Source of the DNA: Micromonospora echinofusca
Lineage (GTDB): Bacteria > Actinomycetota > Actinomycetes > Mycobacteriales > Micromonosporaceae
Assembly: GCF_900091445.1 (NCBI RefSeq)
Contig: NZ_LT607733.1
Coordinates: 2,063,501-2,127,500 of the forward strand
Length of the DNA: 64,000 nucleotides
Direction of reading: 5' to 3'
The position numbers were made by a program, and so were the translations under genes. The notes below the pieces were generated by a model, which worked only from the letters and a program-made list of their open reading frames with translations, was not told the DNA's origin and did not search any database. Of this stretch, positions 1-18,631 are shown one piece after another (within the stretch, counting starts at the first letter, position 1; each line of letters opens with the position of its first letter).

Positions 1-3
1 GCC

Positions 4-1329: not shown

Positions 1330-4300
1330 ATGACGCACACCTCGCTCATCGCGGCCCTGTCAGCCTGGGCGGACACCCGGGCGGACGAGCACGCTCTGAC
1401 CTTCGTCGACAGTGCCGGGGCGGCGACCAGCACCACGTACGGGCAGCTCGACGAGGGCGCCCGTACCGTGGCCGGCCACCTGCGGTCGACCGCTGAACCG
1501 GGCGACCGGGCGCTGCTGCTCTTCCCACCCGGCCTCGACTACGTCACGGCCTTCCTCGGCTGCCTCTACGCCGACGTGGTCGCGGTGCCGCTCTACCCGC
1601 CGGGCCCCAGCGCGCGCCTCGACCGTGTCACCTCCGTCGTGCGCGACTGTGGAGCCACCCACGCGCTGACCACCGCGAAGCTGGTCGAAGCGCTGTCGGG
1701 GCTGGCGGCCGAGCCGGACGGACCGGCGGTGCACCCGATCGAGGCGGTACGGGCGCAAGCCGCCCCGGTCGGACCCGACCGGCCGGGGCAGGGCGATCTC
1801 GCCTTCCTCCAGTACACCTCCGGATCGACGGGCGATCCCAAGGGGGTCATGGTCGGCCACGGCAACCTCACCGACAACCACCGGGCCATCGCCGCCGGCT
1901 TCGGGATCACCACCGACGACGTGGTGCTCAGCTGGCTGCCGATGTACCACGACATGGGTCTCATCGGCACCACGTTGCTGCCGCTGTTCGTGGGCATACC
2001 GGCGATCCTGCTCGACACGTACGCGTTCGTCCGGGATCCGCTGCGGTGGCCGGCGGAGGTGTCCCGTTTCAGGGCGACCCTCTCCGGCGGACCCAACTTC
2101 GCCTACCAGCTCCTGGCGGACCGCTTCGACGCCGGGCTGCTCGACGGGACCGACCTCAGCTCGTGGCGGATCGCCTTCAACGGCGCGGAGCCGGTGGACC
2201 GGCGGACGATGGACGCGTTCTCCGCCGCGTACGCGCCGCTCGGGTTCGACCGCCGGGCGTTCTATCCGTGTTACGGCCTGGCGGAGGCGACGCTCTTCGT
2301 CAGCGGCCCCGAGGCCTCGACCGGCTACCGCGCCAGCACCTTCGAAAGGAACGCGCTCGAAACGGGCCGGCTGACCGAGGCGACCGGAGCAGCGGGGACG
2401 GACTCGGTCACGCTGGTCTCCTGCGGCACCCCGCCACCGGGTACGACGGTCGCCGTGCGCCGCCCGGACGGCGAACCCTGCGCTGCGGGCGAGGTCGGCG
2501 AGATCTGCGTGAGTTCCGGCGGGGTGGCCGCCGGGTACTGGGGCAGGTCCGACTCCGCCGCGACGTTCGCCGCCACCGTCGGCGGCCAGCAGGGGACGTT
2601 CCTGCGTACCGGGGACCTCGGCGCGACGTACGACGGCGAACTCTACGTCGCCGGGCGCCAGAAGGACCTGATCATCCGAGCGGGCCGCAACTACCACCCG
2701 CACGACATCGAGACCGTCGCCACCGCGGGCGACGAGCACCTGCGCCCGGGCGGTGCCGCGGCGTTCCAACCGGAGACCGGTGATCAGCGGGTGGCGCTGG
2801 TGGTCGAGGCGTCCCGCAGCGGGCTGGCGCGGCTGCGCGCGGACCCCGCGCTGCTCACGCCGCTGACCGGTGGGCTGCGGCGTCGGGTGGCCACCGACTG
2901 CGGGCTGGACCTCGACGACGTGCTCGTCGTCATGCCCGGCGCGATACCGAAGACCTCCAGCGGGAAGATCCGCCGGCGTGCCACCAGGGAGCAGTTCGTC
3001 GGCGGACGGCTCAAGCTCGTCGTGCCGGCGGTCCCGCCCGTGGCACCAGAGCGGGCCGCCGCCGACACCCACCCCGGCGACCGGCCCGCCGCCGTGGAAC
3101 AGCTCGTCCGGCGGTACGCGAACCTCGAAGGGCCCGAGTTGGACCCGTCGCTGCCGCTGGCGGCGCTGGGACTCGGTTCGCTGCGACTGATCGAACTCAA
3201 GGCGGCGGTCGAGCGGTTGGTGAACGGCACCCTGGACACCGAGCTGTTCTTCGGCGACCGGTCGGTGGCCGAGCTGGTCGCCGCCGCCGCGGAGCCCGGC
3301 CCGGCCGCCGTACCGCTGCCGGCGCAGACCGGCGCGGTGAGCCCCGCCTCGGCCGGCCAGGTCGAGCTGCACTTCTACGACGAGGTGTCCCGCGGCAACC
3401 GGGCGAACAACCTGGCGGTCGCCCTGCGCCTCTCCGGCCGCGTCGAGGAGGAACTGCTGCGTGCCGCGATCGACACGGCCGTCGCTCGGCACCCCGCGCT
3501 GCGCACGACCCTCGGACCCCTCGGCTCCGGCGTCCAGACAGTTCACGACCAGGGCACGGTCGACTGGGAGTGCCGGGCCTTCCCGGACGGCCCCGACGAG
3601 GCGGTACGGGCCTACCTGCACGAGCGGGCATACCGCCCCTTCGACCTCGTGAAGGGCCCGTTGGTGCGGGTGGGGGTCGCGTACCCGCCGGACGGCACGG
3701 TGCTTCTCGTGGCGTGTCATCACGCGGTCGTCGACCACTGGTCGCTCCAGCTCCTGCTCGCCGAGATCCTGCCCCGGATCACGGGCGGCGACGCCCCGCC
3801 GGCCACGGCGGGACCGGGCGCGGCGGACGCCACCGACTGGGCCCGGTTACAGCAGCAGGCGCGACTCGATCCCGACCGGCGGGACCGGGTCACGGCCCTG
3901 GCGCAGAAGTGGCGGCCCCTGCGTGACCTCGTCCTCTTTCCGCAACGACCCGCCTCAGCCCGGCCGCCACGACGACGACCGGACCCGGACCGGCACCGGG
4001 CCGACTGGATCGACTTCGAGGTCGACCCGGACGTCGTACGGAACCTCCACCGGCACGCGGCGCGGCGCGGCTTCACCCCCTTCGTCTGCCTGCTGGCCGC
4101 CTACGCCGAGGCCCTGCACCAGGTGACCGACGAGCCGCGGATCGTGATCGGCGCGCCGCACCACGGGCGCACCGACCCGCGCTTCGCCGGCACCGTCGGC
4201 TACCTGGTCAACATGGTGCCCATCCTCGGTGACCTGACCGACCGGCCCGATCCGTCGGCGCTCGAGGAACGCCTGTGGCGGGAATTCCGGGCGGCACTGT

Positions 4301-4689: not shown

Positions 4690-4696
4690 GGCGGAG

Positions 4697-7600
4697 ATGA
4701 TGACTGCTTCCGATGGTGCCGTCGGTAATCTGGTGGAGTCGTTCGACGAGGTCGTCCGACGTGACCCGGACAGCATCGCGGTGTGCTGCGCAGACCGGCG
4801 GATGTCGTACGCCGAGGTGGCCGCCCGGTCGACGGCTCTCGCCGCGGCGATCAGGGCGCGCGTCGACGACCCGTCCCGGCCGGTGCTGCTGCTCCTGCCG
4901 CGTTCGGCGGACATGGTGGTCGCGGGCCTGGCCGTGCTGCGGGTGGGCGCGGCGTACGTGCCGGTCGATCCGTCCACTCCCGCCGCCCGGCTGAGGCTGA
5001 TCGTGGCGGACGCGGCGCCCTCGCTGGTGTTGACGACGCCCGAGCTGGCGGAGCTGCTGCCGCCGGACACCCCGGTGATGGGGCCGCAGGACGTCGCGCA
5101 GGACCGGAGCGACGACACCGACGGGCGGTGCCCTGCCGCCTGGGACACCCGCGCCTACGTGATCTACACCTCGGGCACCACCGGGCGGCCGAAGGGCGTG
5201 GAGGTCAGCCACGGCAACGTGCTGCGCCTGATCCGGGTCACCCGGCCGCAGTTCGGCTTCGGCGCCGGGGACGTCTGGACGATGTTCCACTCGTTCGCCT
5301 TCGACTTCTCCGTCTGGGAGATGTGGGGGGCGCTGCTGTCCGGTGGCCGGCTGGTCGTCGTGGGACAGGACGTCGCACGGGACCCGGTCGCCTTCCGGGC
5401 GTTGCTCGCCGACGAACAGGTGACGATGCTCAGCCAGACGCCCACCGCCTTCAACAGCCTGGTGGCGCACGAGACCTCCCAGCCCGACAGGCTGCCGCTC
5501 AAGTGGGTGGTCTTCGGCGGTGAGGCACTGCGCTTCGGTGGCCTCCGGCCCTGGGTGGACAGGTACGGCGACCAGCAGCCGCAGCTGGTCAACATGTACG
5601 GCATCACGGAGACGACGGTCCACTCCTCGTACCGCAGGGTCCTCGCGGCCGACCTGACGAGCACGGCCAGCCTCATCGGCCGTCCGCTGCCGGATCTCGG
5701 CTTCCTGCTCTGGGACGAGCGGGGCCGGCCGGTGGCCCCGGGCCGGACCGGTGAGATCGTCGTGACCGGGCCAGGGGTGGCCACCGGATACCTGGGCCAG
5801 CCCGAGGCGACCGGCGAGCGGTTCCTCGACCTGACCGTCGACGGCAGGCCCGTGCGGGGATACCGCTCCGGTGACCTCGCGCGCCTGACCCCCGCCGGGG
5901 AGTACGAGTACCTGGGACGGGCCGACGACCAGGTCAAGATCCGTGGGCACCGGGTCGAGCTCGGGGAGATCCACGCGGCGCTGACCGCGGTACCCGGCGT
6001 CGGGCAGGTCGCGGTGACCGTCCGCCGGGCGCGGCCGCAGCGCAATCCGGTGGTGAAGCAGGAGGCGGTGTCGGGCCGGATCTCCTCGGTGCGCAGTCTC
6101 GTCCGGGCCGGGCAGCCGGCGTCGGGCACCGGCAACGACCGGACGCAGATCGTCGCGTACGTGACCCACGACCCCGGCTGCGAGCTGGGGGAGGTCCCGG
6201 AACTGCTGCGGGCGAGCCTGCCGTCGTACATGCTTCCGGCGTTCGTCGTCCCGGTGCCGGAGATTCCCGTGAACGCCAACGGGAAGGTCGACTTCACGCT
6301 CCTGCCCGCACCGACCGCGGCCAACCAGCTCCGGGCGCCGACGGCCACGGAGCCGGTCGCCGACGCCTCGTCGGCGACCGCGCAGCGGGCGATCTGCGCG
6401 CTGTTCGAGGAGGTGCTCGGCGTCGAGGGGGTGGGACCCGACGACTCCTTCTTCGGCATCGGCGGGGACTCCATCATCGCGGTGCAGCTGCGTGCGGCCG
6501 CGGCGAACCGCGGGATGACGCTGGACCTGGCGGACATCTACGAGCTGAAGACGCCGCGTGCGCTGGCCGCGTACGCGGTCGCCACCGACGAGTCGGTCGA
6601 CCCGCCGGTCGAGCCGTTCAGCCTCGTCGACCCGGCGGACCGGGCGCTCCTGCCGGCCGGCGCGGTGGACGCCTACCCGTTGGCCACCCTCCAGGCCGGC
6701 GTGCTGTTCCACAGCGCGTACGCCGAGGGCGTCAACATGTACTGCGACATCTTCATGTTCCGGTTGCGCGCCAGGTTCGACCACGACGCCATGAGCCGCG
6801 CGCTCGCGCGGGTGACCGAGCGCCACGAGATCCTGCGGACGTCGTTCCACCTGTCCGGCTTCTCGCAACCGCTCCAGGTCGTCCACGCGCAGGCCCGCAC
6901 CCCGCTGACCGTGGCGGACCTGAGCCGCCTCGACGAGGACCGGCAGCTGGCCGAGTTCGAGGCCTGGCAACGCCGGGAGATGAGCAACCCGTACGACTGG
7001 GCGCGGCCGCCACTGGTCCGGTTCACGGCGCACCTGCTCGGCCCGGACGAGTTCATGTTCTCCATGAGTTTCCACGACACGATGTTCGACGGGTGGAGCG
7101 AGACGTCACTGCTCGCGGAGATCCTCGTCGACTACTGGCAGGACCTGCGGGGCATCGCGTCGCACGACCGTGCCCTGCCCGTGCGCCGGTACGCCGACTT
7201 CATCGCCAAGGAACAGGCCGTGCTCCGCGACGAGGCGGTGCGGGAGTTCTGGCGGCAGGAGCTGGCCGACGTCGAGCCGAGCCTGCTGCCCCGCCTGGCC
7301 CGGGGCTCCGGCGCCGTCCACGAGGGGCGGATGGGCTTCCTCAGCGCGGACCTCCCGGCGGAACTCTCCGACCGCCTGCACCAGCTCGCCGCCGCCTGCG
7401 GGGTGTCGGTCAAACACGTGGTGATGGCCGTCCACTCGCGGGTGGTGATGGCGCTCACGGGACGCGACGACGTCGTGCTCGGCGTCGCCGCCAACGGGCG
7501 GATCGAGGAGGAGGGCGGCACCGAGGTCATCGGCCTGCACCTCAACCTCGTACCCTTCCGGCTCCGGCCACGGGGTCGCACCTGGCGCGACCTGATCGCG

Positions 7601-10600
7601 GCGACCAGCGACAAGGAGCGGGAGCTGCTGCCGGTGCGGCGCTTCCCGCACGCCGAGATGCTCCGTCTCGCCGGTGTACCCGAGCTGACCGACATCATGT
7701 TCAACTACACCCACTTCCACGGCTACGAACGGCTCGCCCATGCCACGGGCATCGAGGTGGTGGACGGCTTCGGCTACATCCAGACGAACTTCACCCTGCG
7801 GGCCGAGTTCAACAAGGATCCGTTCAGTCGACTGCTCACGCTCGACCTCGAAGCGAACATGGAGCGGATCTCGGCGGACCAGCTCCACGAGGTGGCGGAC
7901 ATCTTCCTGCGGGCGCTGACGAGCGTCGTCGACCAGCCGGACGACGAGCCGACCCAGGTCGCGCTGCTCGGTGAGCAGCGGTACCGGGCGTTGCTGGCGA
8001 TCTCACGCGGGCCGGTCGAGCCGGCGACGGCGACGGGCTTCCTCGACCGGATGGCCCACTCGGTGCAGACGTTCCCTGACGAGGTGGCCGCCATCTGCCG
8101 CGGCCGCGAGATCACCTACCGGGAGCTCGCCGCACACGTCGAGCGGGTGGCCGGATGGCTGCGCGAACGGCAGGTGGGTCACGGCACCGTGGTCGGCCTG
8201 GCCAGCGGCCGGAACATCGACTACCTCGTCGTCACCCTCGCCATCCTCCGCCTCGGCGCGGTGTACCTGCCGCTGCCGCAGGGCCCCGCCGCACGCGTTG
8301 CCCGCATGGTCCAACGGGCGCAGGCGAGGCTGGTGGTGTGCGACGAGACGCACCGCGCCGCGCTGGCCGCGATCGGTGAGGTGGAGCTGGTGGATCTGGC
8401 GGACGTCCTCGCCGCCGCTGCCGGCACCCCGGTCGCGCTCGGCCCGGCACCGAGCGGTCGGGACAGCGCGTACATCATCTTCACGTCGGGATCCACGGGC
8501 GAGCCCAAGGGCGCCCTGATCCGGCACGACGGCATGCTCAACCACCTCGACGCCAAGATCCAGCAACTGGACCTGCGGCCCGGCGACCGGCTGGCCCAGG
8601 ACGCCGCCGCCACCTTCGACATCTCCGTCTGGCAGTTCCTCGCGCCACTCGCCGTCGGTGCCACGACCGTGATCTACCCGGACGAGATCGGTCAGGACGC
8701 GGCGTCGCTGCTGCGGGCCGTCGCCGAGGACGGGGTCACCGTGCTGGAGGTGACGCCCTCCGTGCTCAACATCATGTGCGCCGAACTCGCGTTCTACGGC
8801 GTCGACGCGTTCCCTCCGTTCCGCCTGCGCTGGGTCGCCTCGCAGGCGGAGACGCTGACCCCACAGTCCGCCAACACGTTCCGCCGGCTGCTTCCCGAGG
8901 TGGGGCTGCTGAACATGTGGGGGACGACCGAGACGTCCGACGACGTCCTGCACCACCTCGTCGCGGCGGACGTCGACGAGCGGGACGCCTCCGTCCCCAT
9001 CGGACGGCCCGTGCGCAACACCGCCCTGTACGTGTTGGACGGCGGCCGCGAGCCGGTGCCCACCGGCACGCCGGGAGAGCTGTACGCCGGCGGGATCTGC
9101 GTCGGCGGCGGCTACCTCAACGACCCCGACCGGACCGCAGCGGTCTTCGTCAGCGACCCCTTCGCCGTCGACGGGGACGCCATCATGTACCGCACCGGTG
9201 ACCGCGGCCGTCGGCTGGCGGACGGCTCGGTGGAGTTCCTCGGCCGGATCGACAACCAGCTCAAGATCAGAGGGAACCGGGTCGAACTGGACGAGGTCAG
9301 CCGCGCCCTCGCCGGTGTCGAGGGCGTCCAGGAGAGTGTGGTGATCGTCCGGCAGTCCGCCGACGGCGGCAAGCAACTCGCCGGGTTCTACGTACCGGAA
9401 GTGCTCTCCGGCGGCGCCGGCGGTGCGGCCGAGGGCTCCCTGGTCCGCCGGGACCTGCGGCCCGAGGAGGTCCGCTCCGGGCTCAGCCAGGTCTTGCCAC
9501 GCAACGCCATCCCGGACTTCCTCGTCCGCATCGACCAGTTGCCGCGGACGAGCCACGGCAAGGTCGACACCCGCTCGCTGGCGGTGACGGCCCTCTCCCC
9601 GGTCGACGAACCGACCGAGGAGAGCTGTGCCCCGATGACCTCGACGGAGGAGGCCGTCGCCGAGATCTGGGCCTCCGTGCTGTCCGGTCGCCGGCCCGGG
9701 CCCCAGGTCAGCTTCTTCGACCTGGGCGGCCACTCCCTGCACGCGACGCAGGTCCTCGCCCGGCTGCGCGACCGTCTCGGGGTCCGCCTGCCGATCCGGG
9801 AGCTGTTCGAGAACCCGACGCTGCGGGGTTTCGCCGCCCGGGTCGAGGCGGCGCTGACGGACGACCGGGAGTCGGGCGTGCCGATCCCGGCGAGGCCCGC
9901 CGGCCTGCGGGAGTTCCCGCTGTCCATGGCGCAGTCGAGCCTCTGGTACCTCGACCAGCTCGACTCCGACGGCGCCTACACCGACGGTTACCTTCTGCAT
10001 CTTCGTGGCGACCTCGACGTGACGGCGCTGCGGACGGCCGTCGACCGGCTCGTCGCGCGGCACGAGGTGTTGTCCAGCCGGATCGTCGAACGCGACGGTG
10101 TGCCGCTGCTGGTCGTGGATCCCGAAGCGAAGCCGCGCCTGCGGGTCCGGCAGGCCACTGACGCGGTGGTCGCGCAGGGGGACACCGAGGCGATGCTGGA
10201 GTACGTCCGGCAGCGGGCGACGCGGCGCATCGACCTCGGTGGTGTGCTGACCGAGGCGACCCTGTACCGCTTCTCCGACCGGGACCACGTCCTCGAATGG
10301 ACGAGCCACCACGTCGTCACCGACGGCTGGTCCAACGAGGTGATCCTGCGGGAGATCGCGGAGTCGTACGCGGCCCACCGGGCGGGACGGGAGGCGGACC
10401 TCGCCCCGCTCCCGATCCAGTACGGCGACTACTCCCGCTGGCAGCAGAACTACCTCGAATCGGCGCCGGCCCGACGCGAGGGCGACTTCTGGCGGTCCTA
10501 CCTGAAGGGTTACGACGGGGAACTCGCCCTCGCGACCGACCTGGAGCGGACCGAGGACCGTGCGCGGGCCGCGGGCCAGCACCGCCGGGAGTGGGACGAG

Positions 10601-11386
10601 AGCTTGTCCGCCGAGGTGAGGGCGTTCGCGCAGCAACACCACGTGACCCTCTTCATGGTCGTGCACGCCGTCAGCGCGGTGCTGATGGCCAAGCTCGCCC
10701 AGCAGTCGGACGTGGTGATCGGTGCGGCCGTCGCCGGTCGGCACCCGGCGGAGACGAAGGACCTCGTCGGCTTCTTCGCCAACACCGTGCCGTTTCGCTA
10801 CCAGGTCGACCCGGAGCACAGCGCGCGGGCCATGATCGCAGCGGTCCGGGACAGCGCCCTGAACGCCCTGGATCACCAGAGCCTGCCGTTGCAGAAGATC
10901 GTGGACCTCGTGGGAGCACCCCGCCGACCCGGAGTCAGCCCCCTGGTCCAGGTCGTGGTCTCCGTCGCCCGGTCGATGCGCGGTGCCGCCGCGCTGCCGG
11001 GGTTGGACACGAGCGTGACCCAGCTGGGCGCGCAGACGAGCCGCTTCGACCTGTTGCTGCACTTCACCGACGACGACCGGATCGGGCTGACCATCGAGTA
11101 CGACCGGTCGCTGTTCACTCCGGGGGCCATCGACCGGCTGGCCAGGGCGGCCGACCGGCTGCTGAGGTTCTTCTCGGGCAGCCCGGACCGGCCGGTGGAG
11201 GAGGCGACACTCGTCGACGACGAGGACCGCGGGGCGCTCGGGGAGCTCTGGCGGGAGGTGAGCGGCCAGTCCCTCGAGATCGACCACCGCGCGACGGCGA
11301 CCCTCATCGACTCCCCGCACTGGGGCGCGTACGTGTCGCGGGTCGAAGCGGCAGGGCTGATCGTCCCGCTGGTGCTCGCCCTGTGA
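4697..11386 (+). CDS. Two-module NRPS, A-PCP-C-A-PCP-C
   Basis: 2229 residues. Order: A1 (about 1-520; YTSGTTGRPKG from 157), PCP1 (S592 in GGDS), C1 (about 640-1080), A2 (about 1110-1600), PCP2 (S1680 in GGHS), C2 (about 1730-2200; HHVVTDG from H1871). My reading of the specificity pocket for A1 is D-F-W-S-V-G-M-V-H-K, close to threonine codes; A2 reads D-I-W-E-A-Q-M-D-D-K, which I do not recognise, and its acidic residues suggest a basic side chain. C1 has H793-D794-x3-D798-G799 where HHxxxDG is normal, so the usual catalytic second His is Asp. There are no epimerase or methyltransferase domains. The ATG sits 8 bp after the previous stop with GGCGGAG before it. The protein starts with A and ends with C, so it needs docking on both sides. 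Confidence 0.95.
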   Translation: MMTASDGAVGNLVESFDEVVRRDPDSIAVCCADRRMSYAEVAARSTALAAAIRARVDDPSRPVLLLLPRSADMVVAGLAVLRVGAAYVPVDPSTPAARLRLIVADAAPSLVLTTPELAELLPPDTPVMGPQDVAQDRSDDTDGRCPAAWDTRAYVIYTSGTTGRPKGVEVSHGNVLRLIRVTRPQFGFGAGDVWTMFHSFAFDFSVWEMWGALLSGGRLVVVGQDVARDPVAFRALLADEQVTMLSQTPTAFNSLVAHETSQPDRLPLKWVVFGGEALRFGGLRPWVDRYGDQQPQLVNMYGITETTVHSSYRRVLAADLTSTASLIGRPLPDLGFLLWDERGRPVAPGRTGEIVVTGPGVATGYLGQPEATGERFLDLTVDGRPVRGYRSGDLARLTPAGEYEYLGRADDQVKIRGHRVELGEIHAALTAVPGVGQVAVTVRRARPQRNPVVKQEAVSGRISSVRSLVRAGQPASGTGNDRTQIVAYVTHDPGCELGEVPELLRASLPSYMLPAFVVPVPEIPVNANGKVDFTLLPAPTAANQLRAPTATEPVADASSATAQRAICALFEEVLGVEGVGPDDSFFGIGGDSIIAVQLRAAAANRGMTLDLADIYELKTPRALAAYAVATDESVDPPVEPFSLVDPADRALLPAGAVDAYPLATLQAGVLFHSAYAEGVNMYCDIFMFRLRARFDHDAMSRALARVTERHEILRTSFHLSGFSQPLQVVHAQARTPLTVADLSRLDEDRQLAEFEAWQRREMSNPYDWARPPLVRFTAHLLGPDEFMFSMSFHDTMFDGWSETSLLAEILVDYWQDLRGIASHDRALPVRRYADFIAKEQAVLRDEAVREFWRQELADVEPSLLPRLARGSGAVHEGRMGFLSADLPAELSDRLHQLAAACGVSVKHVVMAVHSRVVMALTGRDDVVLGVAANGRIEEEGGTEVIGLHLNLVPFRLRPRGRTWRDLIAATSDKERELLPVRRFPHAEMLRLAGVPELTDIMFNYTHFHGYERLAHATGIEVVDGFGYIQTNFTLRAEFNKDPFSRLLTLDLEANMERISADQLHEVADIFLRALTSVVDQPDDEPTQVALLGEQRYRALLAISRGPVEPATATGFLDRMAHSVQTFPDEVAAICRGREITYRELAAHVERVAGWLRERQVGHGTVVGLASGRNIDYLVVTLAILRLGAVYLPLPQGPAARVARMVQRAQARLVVCDETHRAALAAIGEVELVDLADVLAAAAGTPVALGPAPSGRDSAYIIFTSGSTGEPKGALIRHDGMLNHLDAKIQQLDLRPGDRLAQDAAATFDISVWQFLAPLAVGATTVIYPDEIGQDAASLLRAVAEDGVTVLEVTPSVLNIMCAELAFYGVDAFPPFRLRWVASQAETLTPQSANTFRRLLPEVGLLNMWGTTETSDDVLHHLVAADVDERDASVPIGRPVRNTALYVLDGGREPVPTGTPGELYAGGICVGGGYLNDPDRTAAVFVSDPFAVDGDAIMYRTGDRGRRLADGSVEFLGRIDNQLKIRGNRVELDEVSRALAGVEGVQESVVIVRQSADGGKQLAGFYVPEVLSGGAGGAAEGSLVRRDLRPEEVRSGLSQVLPRNAIPDFLVRIDQLPRTSHGKVDTRSLAVTALSPVDEPTEESCAPMTSTEEAVAEIWASVLSGRRPGPQVSFFDLGGHSLHATQVLARLRDRLGVRLPIRELFENPTLRGFAARVEAALTDDRESGVPIPARPAGLREFPLSMAQSSLWYLDQLDSDGAYTDGYLLHLRGDLDVTALRTAVDRLVARHEVLSSRIVERDGVPLLVVDPEAKPRLRVRQATDAVVAQGDTEAMLEYVRQRATRRIDLGGVLTEATLYRFSDRDHVLEWTSHHVVTDGWSNEVILREIAESYAAHRAGREADLAPLPIQYGDYSRWQQNYLESAPARREGDFWRSYLKGYDGELALATDLERTEDRARAAGQHRREWDESLSAEVRAFAQQHHVTLFMVVHAVSAVLMAKLAQQSDVVIGAAVAGRHPAETKDLVGFFANTVPFRYQVDPEHSARAMIAAVRDSALNALDHQSLPLQKIVDLVGAPRRPGVSPLVQVVVSVARSMRGAAALPGLDTSVTQLGAQTSRFDLLLHFTDDDRIGLTIEYDRSLFTPGAIDRLARAADRLLRFFSGSPDRPVEEATLVDDEDRGALGELWREVSGQSLEIDHRATATLIDSPHWGAYVSRVEAAGLIVPLVLAL

Positions 11387-11414
11387 GGACCGGCGGGACG
11401 AGACCTGGGGAGAA

Positions 11415-14135
11415 GTGCTCATGACGTCGACCGACCGCGCGCTCCGGCTGCGTCGGCGGCTCGCCGGACGCCGCGACGTGTCCGTACCGGCGCTCGGCCG
11501 GACCGCCACCGCGACGGTCACCGCCGACAACCTGGTCGCCGCCTTCGACGAGGTCGCCGGTAGGCACCCCGACCGGGTCGCCGTCCGCTGTGACCGGCAG
11601 GCCCTGACGTACCGGGAGCTGGCCGCCGCCTCCCGGGTCCTGGCAAGCCGGATCGCGACGGTCGCGACGCCCGGCCAGCCGGTCGGTGTGCTGCTGCCGC
11701 GCTCGGCACGGATGATCGTGGCGGCGCTGGCGGTGCTCCGGACGGGCGCCGCGTACCTGCCGCTCGACCCGGAGGCGCCCGCCGTCCGTACCGGCATGAT
11801 CGTCGGTGCCGCGGCGCCGTCCCTGGTGATCACCACGGGTACGCTGGCCGGCTCCCTGCCCGCGACGGTCGCGGCTGTCCTGCTCGACGCCTCGGACAGC
11901 GGCGCGTTGCGGCCGGACCCGCCCGCCGCACCGGCCCGCCCGATCGCGCCCACCGACCGGGCGTACGTCATCCACACCTCGGGCACGACCGGCCGGCCCA
12001 AGGGGATCGAGGTCTCGCACGCCAACGTCCTGCGCCTGGTCGGCACCACGCAGCCACTGTTCGGCTTCGGGCCGGACGACGTGTGGACCATGGCGCACTC
12101 GTTCGCCTTCGACTTCTCGGTGTGGGAAATGTGGGGGCCGTTGCTCACCGGCGGGTGTGTGGTCGTCGTCGAGGGCGAGGTCATGCGGGACCCGGTCGCC
12201 CTGCGGCGCCTGCTGCGGGCGGAGCGGGTCACGATGCTCAGCCAGACGCCCACCGCCTTCAGCTCGCTGGCGGCCCAGGAGGACGAGTACGACGACCGGC
12301 TGCCGCTGCGGTGGGTGGTCTTCGGCGGTGAGGCGCTCCGGTTCGCAGATCTGCGGCCATGGGTCGCCAAGTACGGCGACGCCGCGCCCGAACTGGTCAA
12401 CATGTACGGGATCACCGAGACCACCGTCCACGCGTCGTACCGCCGGATCCTCGCCTCCGACGTCACCGGCACGACCAGCCTGATCGGTGCGCCACTTCCC
12501 GACCTCGACTTCCTGTTGTGGGACGAGGACGACCAGCCGGTCGCCGACGGTGAGATCGGGCAGATCATCGTCACGGGTGCGGGCGTGGCCCTCGGATACC
12601 TGGGGCAACCGGAACTCACCGCGCAGCGGTTCGTCACCGTCACCGACGCGCAGGGCCGGCCCGTACGCGGATACCGCTCCGGGGACCTCGCCCGGCGGAC
12701 GCCTTCCGGCGAGTACGAGTACCACGGGCGCAACGACGACCAGGTCAAGATCCGTGGCTACCGCCTGGAGGTGGGAGAGGTGCACGCCGCCCTGCTCGCC
12801 CGTCCCGGTGTGCGGCAGGCCGCGGTGGTGCCGCACACCGCACCCGGCGCGGGAACGCGGCTGGTGGCGTACGTCGTCGGTGACGCCGGTCCGGCGGAGC
12901 TGCGCTCCTGGATGGAGGGTCGGCTTCCGGTGTACGCCGTACCGTCCGCGTTCATCCTCGTCGACGCGCTGCCGCGAACCGCCAACGGCAAACTCGACCG
13001 GGCGGCCCTGCCCGACCCGAACCCCGTCCTGACGCCACACGTGCCCGCAGGCGTCGACGACGTCACGCGGTCCCTGCTGGCGATCCTGGCGGAGCTGCTG
13101 CCCGGCACCGAGGTCGAAGCGGACACCGACTTCTTCCGGCAGGGCGGGAACTCCCTGCTGGCGACCCGCCTGCTGGCCGCCGTACGCCGACAGTTCGGTG
13201 TCGTCGTCCCGCTGCGCGACTTCCTGAAGGCGCCGACGGTACGAGCGGTGGCGGGCGCGGTCCGTCGGGCCCGGCCGGCCGGACGGAGTGCGGCGTCCCG
13301 CCGCCCGGTCGACCTGTTGCCGCTGGGGGACTCCGTGGCGGGCCGGGCGCCCGTGGTGGCGCTGCCCGGCGTCTTCGGGATCGGCGCCTCGATGGCGCGG
13401 CTGTCGACGCACGTGCGGGGCCGCCCGTTCTACGCCCTGCACACCCGCGACCTCCTCCGGGCGCAGGACGGCACGCCGTCCGCCGCCGTCGCCGCCCAGG
13501 CCTGCCTGACCGAGCTGCTGCCCGTCGTCGATCCCGGCGTCCACCTCGTCGGACATTCCCTGGGTGGGGCGATGGCGCTGCACCTCGCCCACGCGCTGCG
13601 GGCGGGCGGCCGCCAGGTGCGGAGCATCACCCTGCTCGACGCACCGAGCCCACGATGTCTCCACCAGCGCCGCTCCGAGGAACACCGGACCCGGCTGGTC
13701 GCCTTCCTCTCCGACGTCGCCGTCGCGTTTCCGGAGCACACCCGGCGGTGGCGTGAGCTCTCCCCGCAGTCCGCGGCCGGGTTGCCCGACACGGAACTCC
13801 TGCGTTGGGCCGCCTCCACCGCCGCGCCCGCGCTGGCTGCCACGATCGGCGAGCTCGCCGACGCCTTCGAGGACTACCGGACGATGGGACGGATCATGGC
13901 GGAGCCCGCGCCTGCCCTGGCCGTGCCCGCACTGCTGCTGGTGGCGGGCCTGGAGAGGTCCGACGACGATGACGGGCACACCGGGGGCTGGCACCTGGTG
14001 CTGCCGAACCTGACCGAGACGGTGGTGGCCACCACCCACGAGGGCCTGCTGCGTGACCCCGAAGCGGCTACCGTCGCCGAGGCAATGATCGAGTTCCAGC
14101 GCCAGCAGGACAAGACGGAAGGAAACCCGAGTTGA
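11415..14135 (+). CDS. Terminal NRPS, A-PCP-TE
   Basis: 906 residues starting at a GTG (about 6 bp after GGGGAGAA). A domain about 40-530 with HTSGTTGRPKG and a pocket I read as D-F-W-S-V-G-M-V-H-K, identical to A1 of the preceding protein; PCP with S580 in GGNS; thioesterase about 640-900 with the nucleophile S715 in GHSLGG and a likely catalytic His in TTHEGLL. It should add the third residue, taken over from the C domain that ends the preceding protein, and then release the chain as acid, ester or ring. The A1 and A3 domains are also very alike outside the pocket (for example the shared AFDFSVWEMW and VVFGGEALRF), suggesting duplication of one threonine-type domain. The stop overlaps the next start, so it is translationally coupled to the exporter. 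Confidence 0.94.
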   Translation: MLMTSTDRALRLRRRLAGRRDVSVPALGRTATATVTADNLVAAFDEVAGRHPDRVAVRCDRQALTYRELAAASRVLASRIATVATPGQPVGVLLPRSARMIVAALAVLRTGAAYLPLDPEAPAVRTGMIVGAAAPSLVITTGTLAGSLPATVAAVLLDASDSGALRPDPPAAPARPIAPTDRAYVIHTSGTTGRPKGIEVSHANVLRLVGTTQPLFGFGPDDVWTMAHSFAFDFSVWEMWGPLLTGGCVVVVEGEVMRDPVALRRLLRAERVTMLSQTPTAFSSLAAQEDEYDDRLPLRWVVFGGEALRFADLRPWVAKYGDAAPELVNMYGITETTVHASYRRILASDVTGTTSLIGAPLPDLDFLLWDEDDQPVADGEIGQIIVTGAGVALGYLGQPELTAQRFVTVTDAQGRPVRGYRSGDLARRTPSGEYEYHGRNDDQVKIRGYRLEVGEVHAALLARPGVRQAAVVPHTAPGAGTRLVAYVVGDAGPAELRSWMEGRLPVYAVPSAFILVDALPRTANGKLDRAALPDPNPVLTPHVPAGVDDVTRSLLAILAELLPGTEVEADTDFFRQGGNSLLATRLLAAVRRQFGVVVPLRDFLKAPTVRAVAGAVRRARPAGRSAASRRPVDLLPLGDSVAGRAPVVALPGVFGIGASMARLSTHVRGRPFYALHTRDLLRAQDGTPSAAVAAQACLTELLPVVDPGVHLVGHSLGGAMALHLAHALRAGGRQVRSITLLDAPSPRCLHQRRSEEHRTRLVAFLSDVAVAFPEHTRRWRELSPQSAAGLPDTELLRWAASTAAPALAATIGELADAFEDYRTMGRIMAEPAPALAVPALLLVAGLERSDDDDGHTGGWHLVLPNLTETVVATTHEGLLRDPEAATVAEAMIEFQRQQDKTEGNPS

Positions 14136-15400
14136 CCCGGGAACCGGCTGCGAGCGCAGCGTTCCGCCCACCGCGACTGGCCAGGATCCTCGTCGGCGGT
14201 TCCGGCGTGATGAGCCTGGCCAACGGCGTGACGATTCCCTTCCTCGCCATCTATCTCCGCAACGAACTCGGCCTGTCCGTCTCGACGGTCGGCCTGGTCA
14301 TCGGCTCCTCCGTCCTCTTCGGCATCTCCGGCGGGTTTCTCGGCGGCGCGCTCTCCGACATCGTGGGACGCCGCCGGGTCCTGCTCTCCTGCCTGCTGGT
14401 GGTGATCGGCAGCTTCGTCGGGTTCTTCTTCGCGCGCGACGCCGTGACGGCGTTCGTCTTCAACGCGTCCATGGCGTTCGCCACCAGTGCCTTCAGCCCG
14501 GTTGCGAAGGTACTCATCAGCGACCTGCTCCCCGTTGCGCTGCGGGTGAAGTGGTTCTCCTACCAGTACCTCGCGATCAACGCCGGCTACGCCGTCGGTC
14601 CGCTGATCGGCGTGGCCCTCGGGTTCACCGGCGCTCGGATCTCCTTCCCCGCCGCAGCCGTCGTGTACCTGGTCTACCTCGCCGTCCTCTGGACGGCCAC
14701 GCGGCAATTGCCGCGACCGTCCATCGAGGACGCCGGGCTGGCGACGCTCGGCCGCAGCACGGGCGCCATCGTCCGCGGACTGGGCGAATCGGCCCGGGCG
14801 GTCATGTCGGACCGCCGCCTGCTTCTCCTGCTCATCGGCGCGATCCTGTTGGAGACGGTGCACAGCCGGATCTCGGTGCTGCTCGCCCAGAACTTCGTCA
14901 TCGACTTCGCCGACAGCGCCCGGGTGCTCGCCGCGGTCATGACCACCAACGCGGTGGCGGTGATCATCCTCCAGCTCTTCGCCGCCGGTTACGTGCAGCG
15001 CTACAACCCGCTGAACGCCATCACCCTCGGCGGGATCCTCACCTTCGTCGGGATGGCCGGCTTCGCGATCTCCGAGCAGATGTGGCACTACATCGTGGCG
15101 ATGGTGGTGTTCACCGTCGCCGAGACCCTGATCGTGCCGTCGGAGTTCGCGCTCGTCGACCGCATCGCGCCCGAGGACCGGCGCGGAGCCTACTTCGGCG
15201 CACAGACCTTCGCGCAGGTCGGCGGGTTCACGGGACCGTTCCTCGGCAGCCTCGTCCTCGCGTCCTTCGGCGGGCCGGTCATGTTCCTCGCCATCGGCTC
15301 CCTGGCGATGGTGAGCGTCGCGATCTACCTGCTGGTCGGCCGGCGCATCCCCGACCTGAATCGCCATGACACCCACCCGGAGACCGAAAAGGCGTCGTGA
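14132..15400 (+). CDS. MFS transporter, probable product exporter
   Basis: 422 residues with about twelve hydrophobic spans, typical of the major facilitator superfamily; the loop after span 2 carries GGALSDIVGRRRVL, the usual GxxxDxxGRR signature. A TTG start overlaps the stop of the NRPS (TTGA), and its own stop overlaps the acylase start (GTGA). Being locked between the thioesterase gene and an acylase gene, it most likely exports the peptide product. Drug-type proton antiporters are the closest family by appearance. Substrate is inferred from position only. Confidence 0.88.
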   Translation: MTREPAASAAFRPPRLARILVGGSGVMSLANGVTIPFLAIYLRNELGLSVSTVGLVIGSSVLFGISGGFLGGALSDIVGRRRVLLSCLLVVIGSFVGFFFARDAVTAFVFNASMAFATSAFSPVAKVLISDLLPVALRVKWFSYQYLAINAGYAVGPLIGVALGFTGARISFPAAAVVYLVYLAVLWTATRQLPRPSIEDAGLATLGRSTGAIVRGLGESARAVMSDRRLLLLLIGAILLETVHSRISVLLAQNFVIDFADSARVLAAVMTTNAVAVIILQLFAAGYVQRYNPLNAITLGGILTFVGMAGFAISEQMWHYIVAMVVFTVAETLIVPSEFALVDRIAPEDRRGAYFGAQTFAQVGGFTGPFLGSLVLASFGGPVMFLAIGSLAMVSVAIYLLVGRRIPDLNRHDTHPETEKAS

Positions 15401-17832
15401 GAGCCGCGGCGGGCATCCTGCGCCTGGCCGCCTGGCCGAGCAGTCGTGCGCTCCGGCGGACCCGGGTGCTTTATCTGGCGGCCCTGCACGGGACCGTCGA
15501 CATCGACCGCGACGCGCGCGGCATCCCGTGGATCCGCGCGGGCGACGAGCGCGATCTCTACGTGGGCGTCGGGGTCGCGATGGCGTACGACCGGCTGTGG
15601 CAGATGGACGTCCTGCGCCGGCGGGCGACCGGACGACTGGCGGAGGTGTTCGGCGCTCGCGCCGCCGGTTCGGACGTCCTCGCCCGTACCCTCGCCTTCG
15701 AGCGGGCCGCCCGCCAGAGCGAGGCGCTGCTCTCACCGCCTGCCCGCGCCAACCTCGCGGCCTTCGCCCACGGGGTCGACACCGCGGTGCGCCGGATGCG
15801 CCGCCGCGGGCAGCTCCCGCCCGAATTCCACCTCATGAGGTACCGGCCGGGCCCGTGGTCGGTCAGCGACTCGCTGGCCATCGTCAAGCAGCTCGGTTTC
15901 CACCTGGGCCGCAACCTGCAGCAGGAGATGTTCCGCAGCCGGCTGCTGGCGGAGCGACCGGACCTCGTCCGCAGCTTCCTGGCGCCGAAGTACCCACCCG
16001 GTGGCAGCGTCACCATCGCCGCCGACGCCCCGGCAGGGCCGGCGGCACGACGCGGCGACACCGCCCTGCTGTCCGCGGCCGGCGCCGCCCACCTCGGCGA
16101 CCTCTTCGCGGGCCGGCAGGGCAGTGGCTCGAACGCCTGGGCGGTGTCCGCGGCCAGGTCCGCCACCGGCTTCGCGGCGCTGGCCAACGACCCGCACATC
16201 CTGTTCACCCAGCCGAGCCTCTGGTATCAGCTGGGACTGGACCTCGACGGCGAACGCGCGTACGGGGTGACGGTGCCGGGCGTGCCCGGACTCGTGATCG
16301 GCGCCAACCCGGATCTCGCGTGGGGGGTGACCAACTCCACCATCGACACCCAGGACCTGGCCGTGGGGGAGCGGACGGACCCGCCGGGAGAGTCACGGTG
16401 GTCGCAGACCGGCGTCGTCCGGGTGCGAGGCGGGAACGAGATCTCCGTGACCGCCGCAGGCGGGACGGGATACGTCGACCTGCCGGGCCCGCGCGGTGCG
16501 GAAGCGGACCCGGTGGCCCTCTACTGGAGTGGACTGCACCCGTCCACCGAGGCCGAGAGCTGCCAGCGCATGTGGCGGGCGCGCGACTACCCGGCGTTCC
16601 GCGAGACCCTGCGGGGCTTCGGGGTGCCCGTGCTCAACCTCGTCGTCGCGACCCGCGACGGTACGGTCGCGCTGCGGACGGCCGGGATCGTGCCCCGCCG
16701 TGACCGCCAGGAGGGCCTCGCCCCGGCCGGCGCGGCCGAGGTGGCCGCTCGCTGGAGCACCACGCTCGGATTCGACGAGCTGCCGGAGGTCGTCGATCCG
16801 CCAGCGGGCTACGTGGTCAGCGCCAACCACCAGATCCTGCCCGACGGGGTCGGCCCGCACCTGGGCAGCGACTGGGGCGGACCGTACCGGGCCGACCGGA
16901 TCGGGGAGCTGTTGACGGCGACGCCGACGGCCCACCCGGACGACTTCGGCGCGTGGCAGATGGACCTGCGCAACGGCCGGGCACAGCGCATCCTGCCCAC
17001 CCTGCTGAAGGCGCTCGACGAGCATCCACCGGAGTCGCCGCTGGCCGTGTTCGGCCATCAGTCGTTGGCCGCCTGGGACGGCAGGGACGACGCCGATCAG
17101 GCCGCACCTCTGGTCTTCGGGGCGCTGGCCCGGGTGTTGACCGAACGCTGGATCACCAGCCGGCTCGGCGCGGCCGTCGCCGACGCCATGACCGATGCCA
17201 CCCTTCAGGTGGACCACCTGGTGATGGACGGGGATGCCCGCCGGCGGCTCGGCGAGACGGAGGACCTGCCGGTCGTCGTCGCCGACGCCCTCACCGAGGC
17301 GGCGCGTCGACTCGCCGACAGATTCGGCGACGACCCCACCGGCTGGCGCTACGGCAGGTTGAACCGGATCGCGGACCAGCATCCCCTGGCGGCGGTGTCG
17401 GAGACGCTGCGCTCGCTGTACGGATCACCCCCGACTCCGGTGGGCGGTGGCGGGCAGAGCGTCTGTCTCATGTATCCCGACCGCGACGGCCAGGTGGTCG
17501 AGGGTGCGCCGTGGCGCTTCGTCGTCGAGTTCGGCTCCGCCGGCAGCACCCGCATCCGCGACGTGCTCCGCCACGGCAGCTCGGGCAATCCCCTCTCGCC
17601 GCACTACGGGGACCAGACGCCGGCGCACGCCGAGGGGCGGCTGTACGAGGTACGCCTCGACAGCCCACCGGAGGTGCGTAGACGCCTGACCCTGGCGCCC
17701 CGGACGGCGGGGCGGTCGGATCGTGCACGTCGACGGTGGGCTTCTCCGCCGGCCTCGATGGTGCTCACCGTCACCCGTGCTCGAGGGGTGGCGACGGGAG
17801 GCGACTCGAACGGGTCATCGCCAGCGAGATGA
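15397..17832 (+). CDS. Penicillin acylase-family Ntn hydrolase (amide deacylase)
   Basis: 811 residues of the self-cleaving penicillin/AHL acylase family, which hydrolyse the amide between an acyl chain and an amine. The alpha chain opens with the family block VDIDRDARGIPWI, the spacer ends at RQGSG, and the beta chain should begin at S245 in GSNAWAVS, the N-terminal nucleophile. Full family length. The GTG start overlaps the exporter stop. I see no convincing Sec or Tat signal: the N-terminus is MRAAAGILRLAAWPSS followed by a basic stretch, so cellular location is open. Clustered with a fatty-acyl-loading NRPS and an exporter, its natural substrate is probably the acyl-peptide. The last 62 bp run into the convergent gene on the other strand, and the C-terminal ~45 residues look low-complexity. 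Confidence 0.9.
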   Translation: MRAAAGILRLAAWPSSRALRRTRVLYLAALHGTVDIDRDARGIPWIRAGDERDLYVGVGVAMAYDRLWQMDVLRRRATGRLAEVFGARAAGSDVLARTLAFERAARQSEALLSPPARANLAAFAHGVDTAVRRMRRRGQLPPEFHLMRYRPGPWSVSDSLAIVKQLGFHLGRNLQQEMFRSRLLAERPDLVRSFLAPKYPPGGSVTIAADAPAGPAARRGDTALLSAAGAAHLGDLFAGRQGSGSNAWAVSAARSATGFAALANDPHILFTQPSLWYQLGLDLDGERAYGVTVPGVPGLVIGANPDLAWGVTNSTIDTQDLAVGERTDPPGESRWSQTGVVRVRGGNEISVTAAGGTGYVDLPGPRGAEADPVALYWSGLHPSTEAESCQRMWRARDYPAFRETLRGFGVPVLNLVVATRDGTVALRTAGIVPRRDRQEGLAPAGAAEVAARWSTTLGFDELPEVVDPPAGYVVSANHQILPDGVGPHLGSDWGGPYRADRIGELLTATPTAHPDDFGAWQMDLRNGRAQRILPTLLKALDEHPPESPLAVFGHQSLAAWDGRDDADQAAPLVFGALARVLTERWITSRLGAAVADAMTDATLQVDHLVMDGDARRRLGETEDLPVVVADALTEAARRLADRFGDDPTGWRYGRLNRIADQHPLAAVSETLRSLYGSPPTPVGGGGQSVCLMYPDRDGQVVEGAPWRFVVEFGSAGSTRIRDVLRHGSSGNPLSPHYGDQTPAHAEGRLYEVRLDSPPEVRRRLTLAPRTAGRSDRARRRWASPPASMVLTVTRARGVATGGDSNGSSPAR

Positions 17833-18631
17833 ACACGGGCAGCACCGGGGCAAGCAGCACGTAGAGCCATCCCGTCGACCCCAACACCAATCCCTGGTAC
17901 GCCGCCAGGGCTGCTGCTGAGGCGACGTAGAGCACGGCGTGCGCCGGCGCCCACCACCGCCCCTTCGCGAACAGTACCGTCAGGAATCCCAGGACCAGCG
18001 GGGCCGCGAACTGGCCCAGCACGCGTGTGTCCGAGCCGGATGCCAGGCCGACGCCAGCCACGAACGCGAACAGCAGCGAGACCGCCGTGTAGCCGAGGAA
18101 GGCGATGCAGGCGACCGACAAGGCGGTGAGCAGTTGCCGTGCCCGAGGTGCCAGCGGGTGCGTACGCGCCCGTAGGTTCCGGTGCACCAGCACGCTGAAC
18201 GCCATGGTCTGCAGCAGCATCTCCGGCAGCCCGACAGCGTGGAACCACAGCGGCAGCCGTGTGTAGAGAAGCCCCTCGAACGAGCTCGGGGCGGCTGCGG
18301 GGGTACCGAGGATCCCGATCGTCACGAACACGGCCCAGAGCCACAGCCATCCCCACCGGGAGGCGGCCAGGACGCCGCGGAAGGGCAGCAGCACCACCCC
18401 GAACATGACCCCTCGGAGCAGTTGGAGCGTCGTGGACGCCACGATGTCCACGGACCCGTAGGGCAGGTAGTAGTCGCCGATCACCGGTCGCTCAAGGATG
18501 TCGGCGTAGTCCAGGGCGCGGGATGCGATCAAGCCGACGAGGAGGTAGGTGACCACGTGGCTGAGAGCGGCCGAGGCCACGAAGCGGAGCGACCCGGGGA
18601 ACCTGATCGCGACACGAGTGAATGCGGCCAT
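17771..18631 (-). CDS. Uncharacterised multi-spanning membrane protein
   Basis: 286 residues with about seven hydrophobic segments and short basic loops; no recognisable motif or cofactor site. The ATG is preceded by GGCAGGAGGG at good spacing, so the start is well supported. It is transcribed towards the acylase gene and overlaps its 3' end by 62 bp. I do not recognise the family. The loops contain LPYGSVDIVAST and GRWWAPAHAVLY, which could serve as search handles. A link to the peptide locus is possible only by proximity. Confidence 0.75.
   Translation of the reverse strand: MAAFTRVAIRFPGSLRFVASAALSHVVTYLLVGLIASRALDYADILERPVIGDYYLPYGSVDIVASTTLQLLRGVMFGVVLLPFRGVLAASRWGWLWLWAVFVTIGILGTPAAAPSSFEGLLYTRLPLWFHAVGLPEMLLQTMAFSVLVHRNLRARTHPLAPRARQLLTALSVACIAFLGYTAVSLLFAFVAGVGLASGSDTRVLGQFAAPLVLGFLTVLFAKGRWWAPAHAVLYVASAAALAAYQGLVLGSTGWLYVLLAPVLPVFISLAMTRSSRLPSPPLEHG

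What the first reader, a model, noticed from the sequence alone, without database searches (positions are those of the whole stretch)
1330..17832. Acyl-tripeptide NRPS locus with built-in export and deacylation
Seen: FAAL-PCP-C, then A-PCP-C-A-PCP-C, then A-PCP-TE, an MFS exporter and a penicillin-acylase-family hydrolase, all coupled by short gaps or overlapping starts. Known: FAAL plus starter C gives an N-acyl peptide; penicillin/AHL acylases cut fatty amides. Inference: a three-residue peptide is made as an inactive N-acyl prodrug, exported, and trimmed to a free-amine product, giving self-protection. Acyl-prodrug schemes are known with other peptidases, but this set of parts for so small a peptide I do not recognise.
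Basis: partly seen in the sequence, partly recalled or inferred. Interest (0 to 1): 0.82.

Follow-up and report, generated by a model that had tools for sequence, protein, structure and literature searches.

The report
Acyl-tripeptide gene cluster with unsecreted acylase
A seven-gene cluster in a soil bacterium seems to build a fat-tailed three-amino-acid peptide and carries an enzyme of the kind that clips such tails off, but neither that enzyme nor any close relative that could be scored shows the usual export tag, so the clipping more likely happens inside the cell than after export as first proposed.

Summary
The parts are real: FAAL-PCP-C, A-PCP-C-A-PCP-C, A-PCP-TE, MFS, penicillin-acylase-family enzyme, + strand, 1330-17832. 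Two more genes run in from the left: an argininosuccinate-lyase-like gene and an SbnA-like/ATP-grasp fusion ending at 1320, read as diamino-acid supply. A-domain codes look Thr, diamino acid, Thr. The block recurs at 12 loci, MFS then acylase in all 12. Acyl-then-deacylate NRPS logic is known (PvdQ, Tem25, GdnD). Two features are unusual. First, the acylases form a discrete clade in which 0 of 60 scored members has a hydrophobic N-terminus, against 42 of 47 outgroup acylases: this argues against export-then-trim. Second, the C domain after Thr1 is closest to McyA and AmbE condensation domains, recalled as dehydrating, yet has HDxxxDG instead of HHxxxDG in 10 of 10 readable loci. So residue 1 may become dehydrobutyrine, and deacylation would free an enamine. 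Product, acyl chain and acylase substrate are untested. The described dehydrated tripeptide albopeptide (recalled, not held) must be compared. New variant of a known kind.

The parts
1..1320 (+). C-terminal part (439 of 766 aa) of a PLP-enzyme (SbnA-like)/ATP-grasp ligase fusion; the gene starts 980 bp left of the window (L017:9020-11320). An argininosuccinate-lyase-like gene (492 aa, L017:7471-8949) lies wholly outside, further left
   Evidence: PLP half best SbnA 5d87 E 7.7e-47, TIGR03945 251 bits (below its cut-off 349.95); ATP-grasp with LAL_C2; lyase TIGR00838 250.6 bits (below its cut-off 279.5)
1330..4689 (+). FAAL-PCP-C loading protein, 1119 aa
   Evidence: starter C motif HHAVVDH
4697..11386 (+). 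NRPS A1-PCP-C-A2-PCP-C, 2229 aa (start 4697 or 4700)
   Evidence: pocket codes DFWSVGMVH (Thr-like) and DIWEAQMDD (diamino-acid-like); GrsA numbering and reference codes recalled
6647..7966 (+). Condensation domain between residues 1 and 2: McyA/AmbE-like (dehydrating type by recall) with HDxxxDG in place of HHxxxDG
   Evidence: controls
11415..14135 (+). NRPS A3-PCP-TE, 906 aa (start 11415 or 11421)
   Evidence: code DFWSVGMVH, TE motif GHSLGG
14132..15400 (+). MFS transporter, presumed exporter, 422 aa, TTG start overlapping the NRPS stop
   Evidence: relatives share the N-terminal extension
15397..17832 (+). Penicillin-amidase-family (Ntn-hydrolase) acylase, 811 aa, predicted beta-chain start S245; no signal peptide seen

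Best explanation
A seven-gene operon (one gene wholly and one partly left of the window, five inside) that makes an N-acyl tripeptide from Thr (possibly dehydrated to dehydrobutyrine), a diamino acid (2,3-diaminopropionate or 2,3-diaminobutyrate) and Thr, and takes the acyl group off in the cytosol before export. Steps: (1) SbnA-like PLP enzyme, ATP-grasp and lyase make the diamino acid (inferred). (2) FAAL adenylates an acid and loads the fused PCP; the starter C domain joins it to residue 1 (domains shown, reaction inferred). (3) Modules 1-3 extend, the McyA/AmbE-like C domain may dehydrate Thr1, and the TE releases (domains shown, chemistry inferred). (4) The unsecreted acylase removes the acyl group inside the cell (family, fold, catalytic residues and lack of a hydrophobic N-terminus shown; substrate and place of action inferred). 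(5) The MFS protein exports the product (inferred). The acyl group would then be a traceless starter or mask, not an extracellular safety cap.
For: Domain order and coupling. Operon conserved 91-96% in Micromonospora C31 amid different flanking genes. Same order in 12 loci, MFS-acylase adjacent in 12 of 12. Among searched genomes that carry the PLP/ATP-grasp fusion, the clade acylase is in 6 of 6 with a FAAL-tripeptide locus beside it and in 1 of 53 others; that one, S. cirratus, has its own FAAL-tripeptide locus elsewhere. S245, H267, N477 and R498 are invariant in a 50-row alignment. AlphaFold2 model pLDDT 89.9, pTM 0.90; closest solved folds D-succinylase and cephalosporin acylases. Hydrophobic N-terminus in 0 of 60 clade members versus 42 of 47 outgroup. 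A2 code DIWE[AV][QSA]MDD in all 10 loci with a readable A2. C domain after module 1: McyA and AmbE best in 3 of 3 loci tested, not listed for the window's other two C domains.
Against: No biochemical evidence that the acylase acts on this product. The missing signal rests on hydropathy, not a trained predictor; 22 of 61 clade members have RR in their first 20 residues; starts are predicted, and in C31 and three Streptomyces relatives the frame is open further upstream, out of phase with the MFS gene. The closest solved relative (26% identity) is a D-succinylase, named for a small dicarboxylic acyl group, so fatty-amide specificity is not given by homology. GdnD is predicted periplasmic. The HD motif replaces a His recalled as catalytic, so whether that C domain dehydrates, condenses or does both is open.
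Confidence: 0.45

Rival explanations
1. Cytosolic detoxification: the acyl-tripeptide itself is the active product, exported by the MFS pump; the cytosolic acylase inactivates molecules that remain in or re-enter the cell, so it is a self-immunity enzyme.
For: Fits the missing signal peptide and the pairing with a transporter. In glidonin work the acylated forms inhibit the producer, deacylated ones do not, and deacylation is read as possible detoxification, with Tem25 compared to it (PMC10587159, passages).
Against: The acylase directly follows the MFS gene of the biosynthetic operon in 12 of 12 loci, while GdnD is encoded about 1 Mb from its cluster and predicted periplasmic. This is weak, since immunity genes are often in the operon too.
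Confidence: 0.27
2. One reading: an inactive N-acyl tripeptide is exported by the MFS protein and trimmed outside to the free-amine product for self-protection.
For: Known logic with another hydrolase (colibactin; PMC9854587, passages), and lipid removal after release in telomycin (PMC9113097, passages). Parts present.
Against: No hydrophobic N-terminus in the acylase or in any of 60 clade relatives scored, while 42 of 47 outgroup acylases have one; in-frame extension only 9 codons in the window.
Confidence: 0.15
3. The acylase is not a deacylase of the main product: it acts as an acyl transferase, cleaves a different amide, or clears shunt products.
For: Closest solved relative is a D-succinylase at 26% identity; no substrate evidence.
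Against: Invariant Ntn catalytic residues and close co-occurrence with the FAAL-started assembly line.
Confidence: 0.1

Closest known systems
Albopeptide, a dehydrated non-ribosomal tripeptide of Streptomyces (Wang and others 2021; title recalled, nothing seen, not held)
   Same: By recall: a tripeptide NRPS product in which a condensation domain turns Thr into dehydrobutyrine
   Different: Not compared: neither paper nor cluster was available. It could be a described relative of this locus
Pyoverdine PvdL/PvdQ (acyl start, Ntn acylase)
   Same: Acyl start unit on an NRPS, removed by an Ntn-hydrolase acylase (PMC10587159 passages; PvdL start recalled)
   Different: PvdQ matches this acylase weakly by sequence (5ubl E 8e-10; NF051460 58.5 of 950 bits) and at about 19-20% identity by fold; periplasmic (recalled); peptide longer
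Telomycin (FAAL, ACP, acylase Tem25)
   Same: Actinobacterial FAAL-started NRPS with an in-cluster acylase; lipid removed after release (PMC9113097 passages; PMC10587159 passages)
   Different: Cyclic depsipeptide of 9 plus 2 residues, free-standing ACP, ABC transporters; here 3 residues, FAAL-PCP-C fusion, MFS. Tem25 sequence not compared
Glidonins / GdnD
   Same: Lipopeptide deacylated by a PvdQ-like acylase
   Different: Acyl start by a starter C domain; acylase about 1 Mb from the cluster and predicted periplasmic
2,3-diaminobutyrate or diaminopropionate supply genes (mureidomycin npsG homologue; SbnA; friulimicin dab genes recalled)
   Same: SbnA-like PLP enzyme, ATP-grasp and argininosuccinate-lyase-like protein, often next to NRPS genes; npsG is proposed for DABA (PMC4572928 passages; its sequence not compared)
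   Different: The GHMP-family kinase found in 61 of 79 such loci had no match in either Micromonospora genome
McyA and AmbE condensation domains (8jbr, 7r9x)
   Same: Closest solved relatives of the module-1 C domain (281 and 179 bits; next 113)
   Different: They show HH where this family has HD in the active-site motif
D-succinylase / cephalosporin acylase (7eby, 7ea4, 4hsr)
   Same: Closest solved fold and sequence of the acylase
   Different: 26-27% identity; not known to me from NRPS clusters (recall)

Membership tests
Penicillin-amidase family (PF01804, Ntn hydrolase) | Profile match over cut-off and Ntn-hydrolase fold | tested here: met
   534 bits vs 21.3; Foldseek to 7ea4 TM 0.78/0.83
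Penicillin-amidase family (PF01804, Ntn hydrolase) | Nucleophile Ser at beta-chain start plus conserved His, Asn, Arg | tested here: met
   S245, H267, N477, R498 invariant in 50 rows; role assignment recalled
PvdQ/GdnD-type secreted deacylase of lipopeptides | Export signal or periplasmic/extracellular place | tested here: not met
   0 of 60 scored clade members with KD12>=1.9 before the domain; outgroup 42 of 47; KD19 max 0.68 near the N-terminus. Hydropathy only, place not measured
PvdQ/GdnD-type secreted deacylase of lipopeptides | Cleaves the N-acyl group of the pathway's peptide | not testable with these tools
   needs an assay
PvdQ equivalog (NF051460) | Score over curated cut-off 950 | tested here: not met
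   58.5 bits
Fatty acyl-AMP ligase | Best named relatives FAAL rather than CoA ligases | tested here: met
   no NCBIfam FAAL model reaches its cut-off
Fatty acyl-AMP ligase | FAAL-specific insertion and acyl-chain length | not tested
   not examined
Three-module lipopeptide NRPS | Starter C plus three A-PCP modules and TE | tested here: met
   (PCP3 by Pfam; the motif scan missed it)
Three-module lipopeptide NRPS | HHxxxDG motif in each C domain | tested here: not met
   Starter C HHAVVDH, module-1 C HDTMFDG, module-2 C HHVVTDG
Dehydrating (modAA, recalled) condensation domain | Closest relatives are known members (McyA, AmbE) | tested here: met
   controls 87, 94
Dehydrating (modAA, recalled) condensation domain | Turns the upstream Ser/Thr into a dehydro residue | not testable with these tools
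   needs an assay; A1 code is Thr-like
SbnA (TIGR03945) | Score over cut-off 349.95 | tested here: not met
   251 bits, the best of its matches
2,3-diaminobutyrate cassette with GHMP kinase | Kinase gene present | tested here: not met
   no match in G000 and G061; matches in 5 of 5 other genomes
Extracellular acyl-prodrug system (colibactin type) | Membrane-bound or secreted activating hydrolase | tested here: not met
   (hydropathy)

The most novel reading that the evidence does not exclude
The acyl group is an intracellular mask on a reactive residue. Thr1 is dehydrated to dehydrobutyrine by a McyA/AmbE-like condensation domain with a family-wide His-to-Asp change; as an N-acyl enamide it is stable. 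A dedicated clade of unsecreted penicillin-acylase-family enzymes then removes the acyl group in the cytosol, freeing an enamine that hydrolyses to a 2-oxobutyryl cap or is captured by the side-chain amine of the neighbouring diamino acid to close a six-membered dihydropyrazinone-type ring, and an MFS protein exports the result. This would tie the FAAL, the odd C domain, the diamino acid in position 2 and the acylase into one piece of chemistry, and would separate acyl-start biosynthesis from the extracellular-prodrug logic.
Probability: 0.2. Interest if true: 0.75.

Novelty: new variant of a known kind. Interest (0 to 1): 0.55.

Why it matters
It offers a compact seven-gene system in which to test why some NRPS pathways add a lipid only to remove it: safety cap, starter chemistry, detoxification, or a mask on a reactive residue. 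The missing export signal in a whole acylase clade makes the site of deacylation directly testable, and the conserved HDxxxDG motif asks how a condensation domain works without the usual second His. It also points to a little-known family of small diamino-acid peptides in Micromonospora, Actinoplanes, Kutzneria, Streptomyces and probably Catenuloplanes.

Tried and rejected
Kutzneria 744 'MFS-acylase fusion' (998 aa): rejected, it reads across an N run. Epimerase domain in module 3 of relatives: rejected, the extra domain has an HHxxxDG condensation motif (8 of 8 loci) and no EGHGR motif in the 4 scanned. Amphipathic N-terminal helix as a membrane tether: the hydrophobic moment exceeds shuffles at p<0.05 in 7 of 61, too weak to claim. 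A clean empty site in close relatives: not found; of the flanking genes the upstream GH30 has relatives, but the three neighbourhoods fetched are not syntenic. Dap versus Dab from the A2 code: not separable, Kutzneria and G124 (kinase present) share DIWEAQMDD with the kinase-less Micromonospora. ATP-grasp as a peptide-bond former for this product: disfavoured, the same fusion sits beside many other NRPS loci. MIBiG and antiSMASH were not available. Recalled, not seen: friulimicin dab and pacidamycin genes, Fu 2015 beyond what the papers cited say, albopeptide, the dehydrating class of McyA/AmbE C domains, EDDS lyase, the chemistry of free dehydrobutyrine, and the Stachelhaus reference codes.

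Full report
OBSERVATION. The five genes described are at the stated coordinates on the + strand, with the stated domains by Pfam and NCBIfam. The loading domain is FAAL-like. Inside the window genes are 7-28 bp apart or overlap by 4 bp. The window edge cuts the operon. In the genome (one contig of 7.0 Mb, window at 2063501-2127500) a 766-aa PLP-enzyme/ATP-grasp fusion ends at 1320 and a 492-aa argininosuccinate-lyase-like gene precedes it. About 1.3 kb without a called gene lies left of the lyase, and a convergent gene without a Pfam match overlaps the acylase tail. The run is seven genes and about 20.4 kb; that it is one transcript is inferred.

UPSTREAM GENES. The PLP half is closest to SbnA in the PDB (5d87, E 7.7e-47) and in NCBIfam (TIGR03945, 251 bits, below its cut-off 349.95). 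The lyase matches argininosuccinate lyases (TIGR00838 250.6 bits, cut-off 279.5) and 6g3d at E 2e-32, recalled as EDDS lyase. The ATP-grasp half resembles the N-terminal half of PRK02186, an ATP-grasp/lyase fusion. The fusion is common: at least 526 proteins at E<=1e-10 (capped candidates). In 79 loci from a genome scan (98 relatives found, best 80 kept) a lyase-family gene is in 67 and a GHMP-kinase-family gene in 61, often beside NRPS genes. Mureidomycin's npsG homologue is proposed for 2,3-diaminobutyrate (PMC4572928, passages); its sequence was not compared. I read the pair as diamino-acid supply. The kinase (Pfam GHMP_kinases_N only) has no match in either Micromonospora genome and matches in 5 of 5 other genomes searched. 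That favours diaminopropionate from O-phosphoserine here, but the A2 code does not settle it.

ASSEMBLY LINE. Pocket residues by script, GrsA numbering from memory: A1 DFWSVGMVH, A2 DIWEAQMDD, A3 DFWSVGMVH; recalled codes are Thr DFWNIGMVH and diaminobutyrate DIWELTxDD. The thioesterase motif is GHSLGG. C-domain motifs: starter HHAVVDH, after module 2 HHVVTDG, but after module 1 HDTMFDG. The HD form is in 10 of 10 loci with a readable module-1 C domain. Among the ORFs of all 79 cassette loci, HDxxxDGW occurs only in 5 FAAL-tripeptide loci, against 108 HHxxxDG motifs (the sixth FAAL locus, L058, ends before that domain). The best solved relatives of this domain are McyA (8jbr, 281 bits) and AmbE (7r9x, 179 bits), next 113; the same two lead for S. 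africanus and G361, and neither is listed at E<=1e-15 for the window's other two C domains. I recall both as dehydrating condensation domains that turn an upstream Ser or Thr into a dehydro residue. McyA and AmbE show HH at the aligned place. So acyl-Thr or acyl-dehydrobutyrine, then Dap or 2,3-Dab, then Thr, is the predicted peptide.

FAMILY. MFS then acylase are adjacent in 12 of 12 (in Kutzneria across an N gap; in S. niveiscabiei the acylase is cut at a contig end). FAAL-PCP-C is in 11; the G312 contig starts too late to tell. Of those 11, PLP enzyme and ATP-grasp are beside the NRPS in 10 (not S. cirratus), the lyase in 9 (not S. cirratus or gapped Kutzneria), the kinase in 8 (27-28% identical in G280 and G361; not window, C31, S. 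cirratus). Module 3 is A-PCP-TE in 3 (window, C31, G124) and A-PCP-C-TE in 8; it was not found in Kutzneria. G280 lacks the two-module protein. In S. africanus, S. acidiscabies and S. niveiscabiei a further gene overlaps the acylase end, so the acylase is not always last. Against my reading, S. cirratus shows the diamino cassette need not be adjacent, though that genome has two elsewhere (L030, L048). The locus is sporadic: 6 of 300 genomes of the family including the window's own, 1 of 394 of the class, its own.

ACYLASE. The protein search (220 proteins at E<=1e-10, best 120 listed) shows 63 clusters at 48% identity or more, then a drop to 36%. Among searched genomes with the PLP/ATP-grasp fusion, the clade acylase is in 6 of 6 with a FAAL-tripeptide locus beside it and in 1 of 53 others. 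Of the 79 loci, 62 were sent and 17 were not; 2 of the 62 were not held. The one exception, S. cirratus, has its own FAAL-tripeptide locus. S245, H267, N477 and R498 are invariant in 50 aligned sequences. The model is good (pLDDT 89.9) and closest to D-succinylase (26%) and cephalosporin acylases (20-27%), then the AHL acylase MacQ (17-18%) and, further down, PvdQ (19-20%). The family is secure; a fatty-amide preference is not.

WHERE IT ACTS. The catalytic domain starts about 34 residues in. Only 9 more codons are open upstream in the window and 5 in A. solisilvae; in C31 (436), S. africanus (145), S. acidiscabies and S. niveiscabiei (42 each) the frame is longer, out of phase with the MFS gene, so there the start is less sure. 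By a 12-residue Kyte-Doolittle mean of the N-terminal extension, 0 of 60 clade members reach 1.9 (maximum 1.78) and 42 of 47 outgroup members do; 3 of 63 clade and 10 of 57 outgroup proteins were dropped because the anchor motif was not found. Extensions under 12 residues cannot score. No segment of the window acylase reaches 1.4 over 19 residues; 22 of 61 clade members carry RR in the first 20 residues. Another acylase-family protein of the same genome (L002) also seems to lack such a stretch, so unsecreted members are not unique to this clade. This is hydropathy, not a trained predictor, and it is the main evidence against export-then-trim.

MECHANISM. Best supported (0.45): acyl group put on at loading, removed in the cytosol, product exported. 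Main rival (0.27): the acylated peptide is the active product and the acylase protects the cytosol, as deacylation is read in glidonins (PMC10587159, passages). The extracellular prodrug keeps 0.15. Boldest reading (0.2, overlapping the first): if residue 1 is dehydrobutyrine, deacylation frees an enamine that gives 2-oxobutyryl or is captured by the diamino side chain; this is chemical inference. Shown here: gene content, order, conservation, families, motifs, lack of a hydrophobic N-terminus. Inferred: every reaction and the product.

NOVELTY. Removal of an NRPS acyl group by penicillin-acylase-family enzymes is known: PvdQ, Tem25, GdnD (telomycin also PMC9113097, passages). Prodrug activation outside the cytosol is reviewed in PMC9854587 (passages). 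Searches found no description of this locus in the held library, and none used dehydration terms. Albopeptide, a dehydrated tripeptide known to me by title, may be a described relative; its paper is not held. I rate the finding a new variant of a known kind: small peptide with diamino cassette, recurrent MFS-acylase pair, an acylase clade that appears unsecreted, and a condensation domain with a conserved HD motif.

Noticed in passing
window 17713-17832: The window acylase runs 39 aa past the stop of its 92%-identical C31 orthologue and its tail overlaps a convergent gene (17771-18631 -); a 90%-identical cluster member, P0121, is also long (804 aa).
   Followed up: partly
A. solisilvae, S. africanus, S. 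acidiscabies, S. niveiscabiei, S. cirratus, G280, G361, G312 (L113, L114, L116-L117, L120, L131-L132, L140, L142, L144): Eight relatives end in A-PCP-C-TE: a condensation domain with HHxxxDG sits before the thioesterase with no PCP seen between, which suggests an extra release or coupling step absent in the window.
   Followed up: partly
L018 (G025:C5 about 160000-177400): In Micromonospora C31 the operon lies beside a second, convergent NRPS cluster with a PLP gene 35% identical to the SbnA-like half; one A code (DVWHVSLVD) looks Ser-like by recall.
   Followed up: no
L131-L132 (S. cirratus): FAAL-tripeptide-acylase locus without an adjacent diamino cassette, in a genome that has two such cassettes elsewhere (L030, L048).
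   Followed up: partly
L140-L141 (G280): The two-module NRPS gene is missing between the FAAL protein and the last module, while the near-identical arrangement in G361 has it; deletion or assembly loss.
   Followed up: no
L040:9495-10574, L059:12274-13341 and relatives: A GntG-family PLP aldolase (435.6 bits, cut-off 230) lies in 29 of 79 cassette loci, but not in the window operon.
   Followed up: partly
L017:2493-6200 (left of the window) and window 24402-26477, 38244-39764, 41956-43608: The operon is set among plant-polysaccharide enzymes: GH10, GH30, GH10 with CBM, GH62, alpha-galactosidase.
   Followed up: no
L002 (G000:C1:3863483-3865516): Another PF01804 protein of the same genome also appears to lack a hydrophobic N-terminus, so unsecreted members exist outside this clade.
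   Followed up: no
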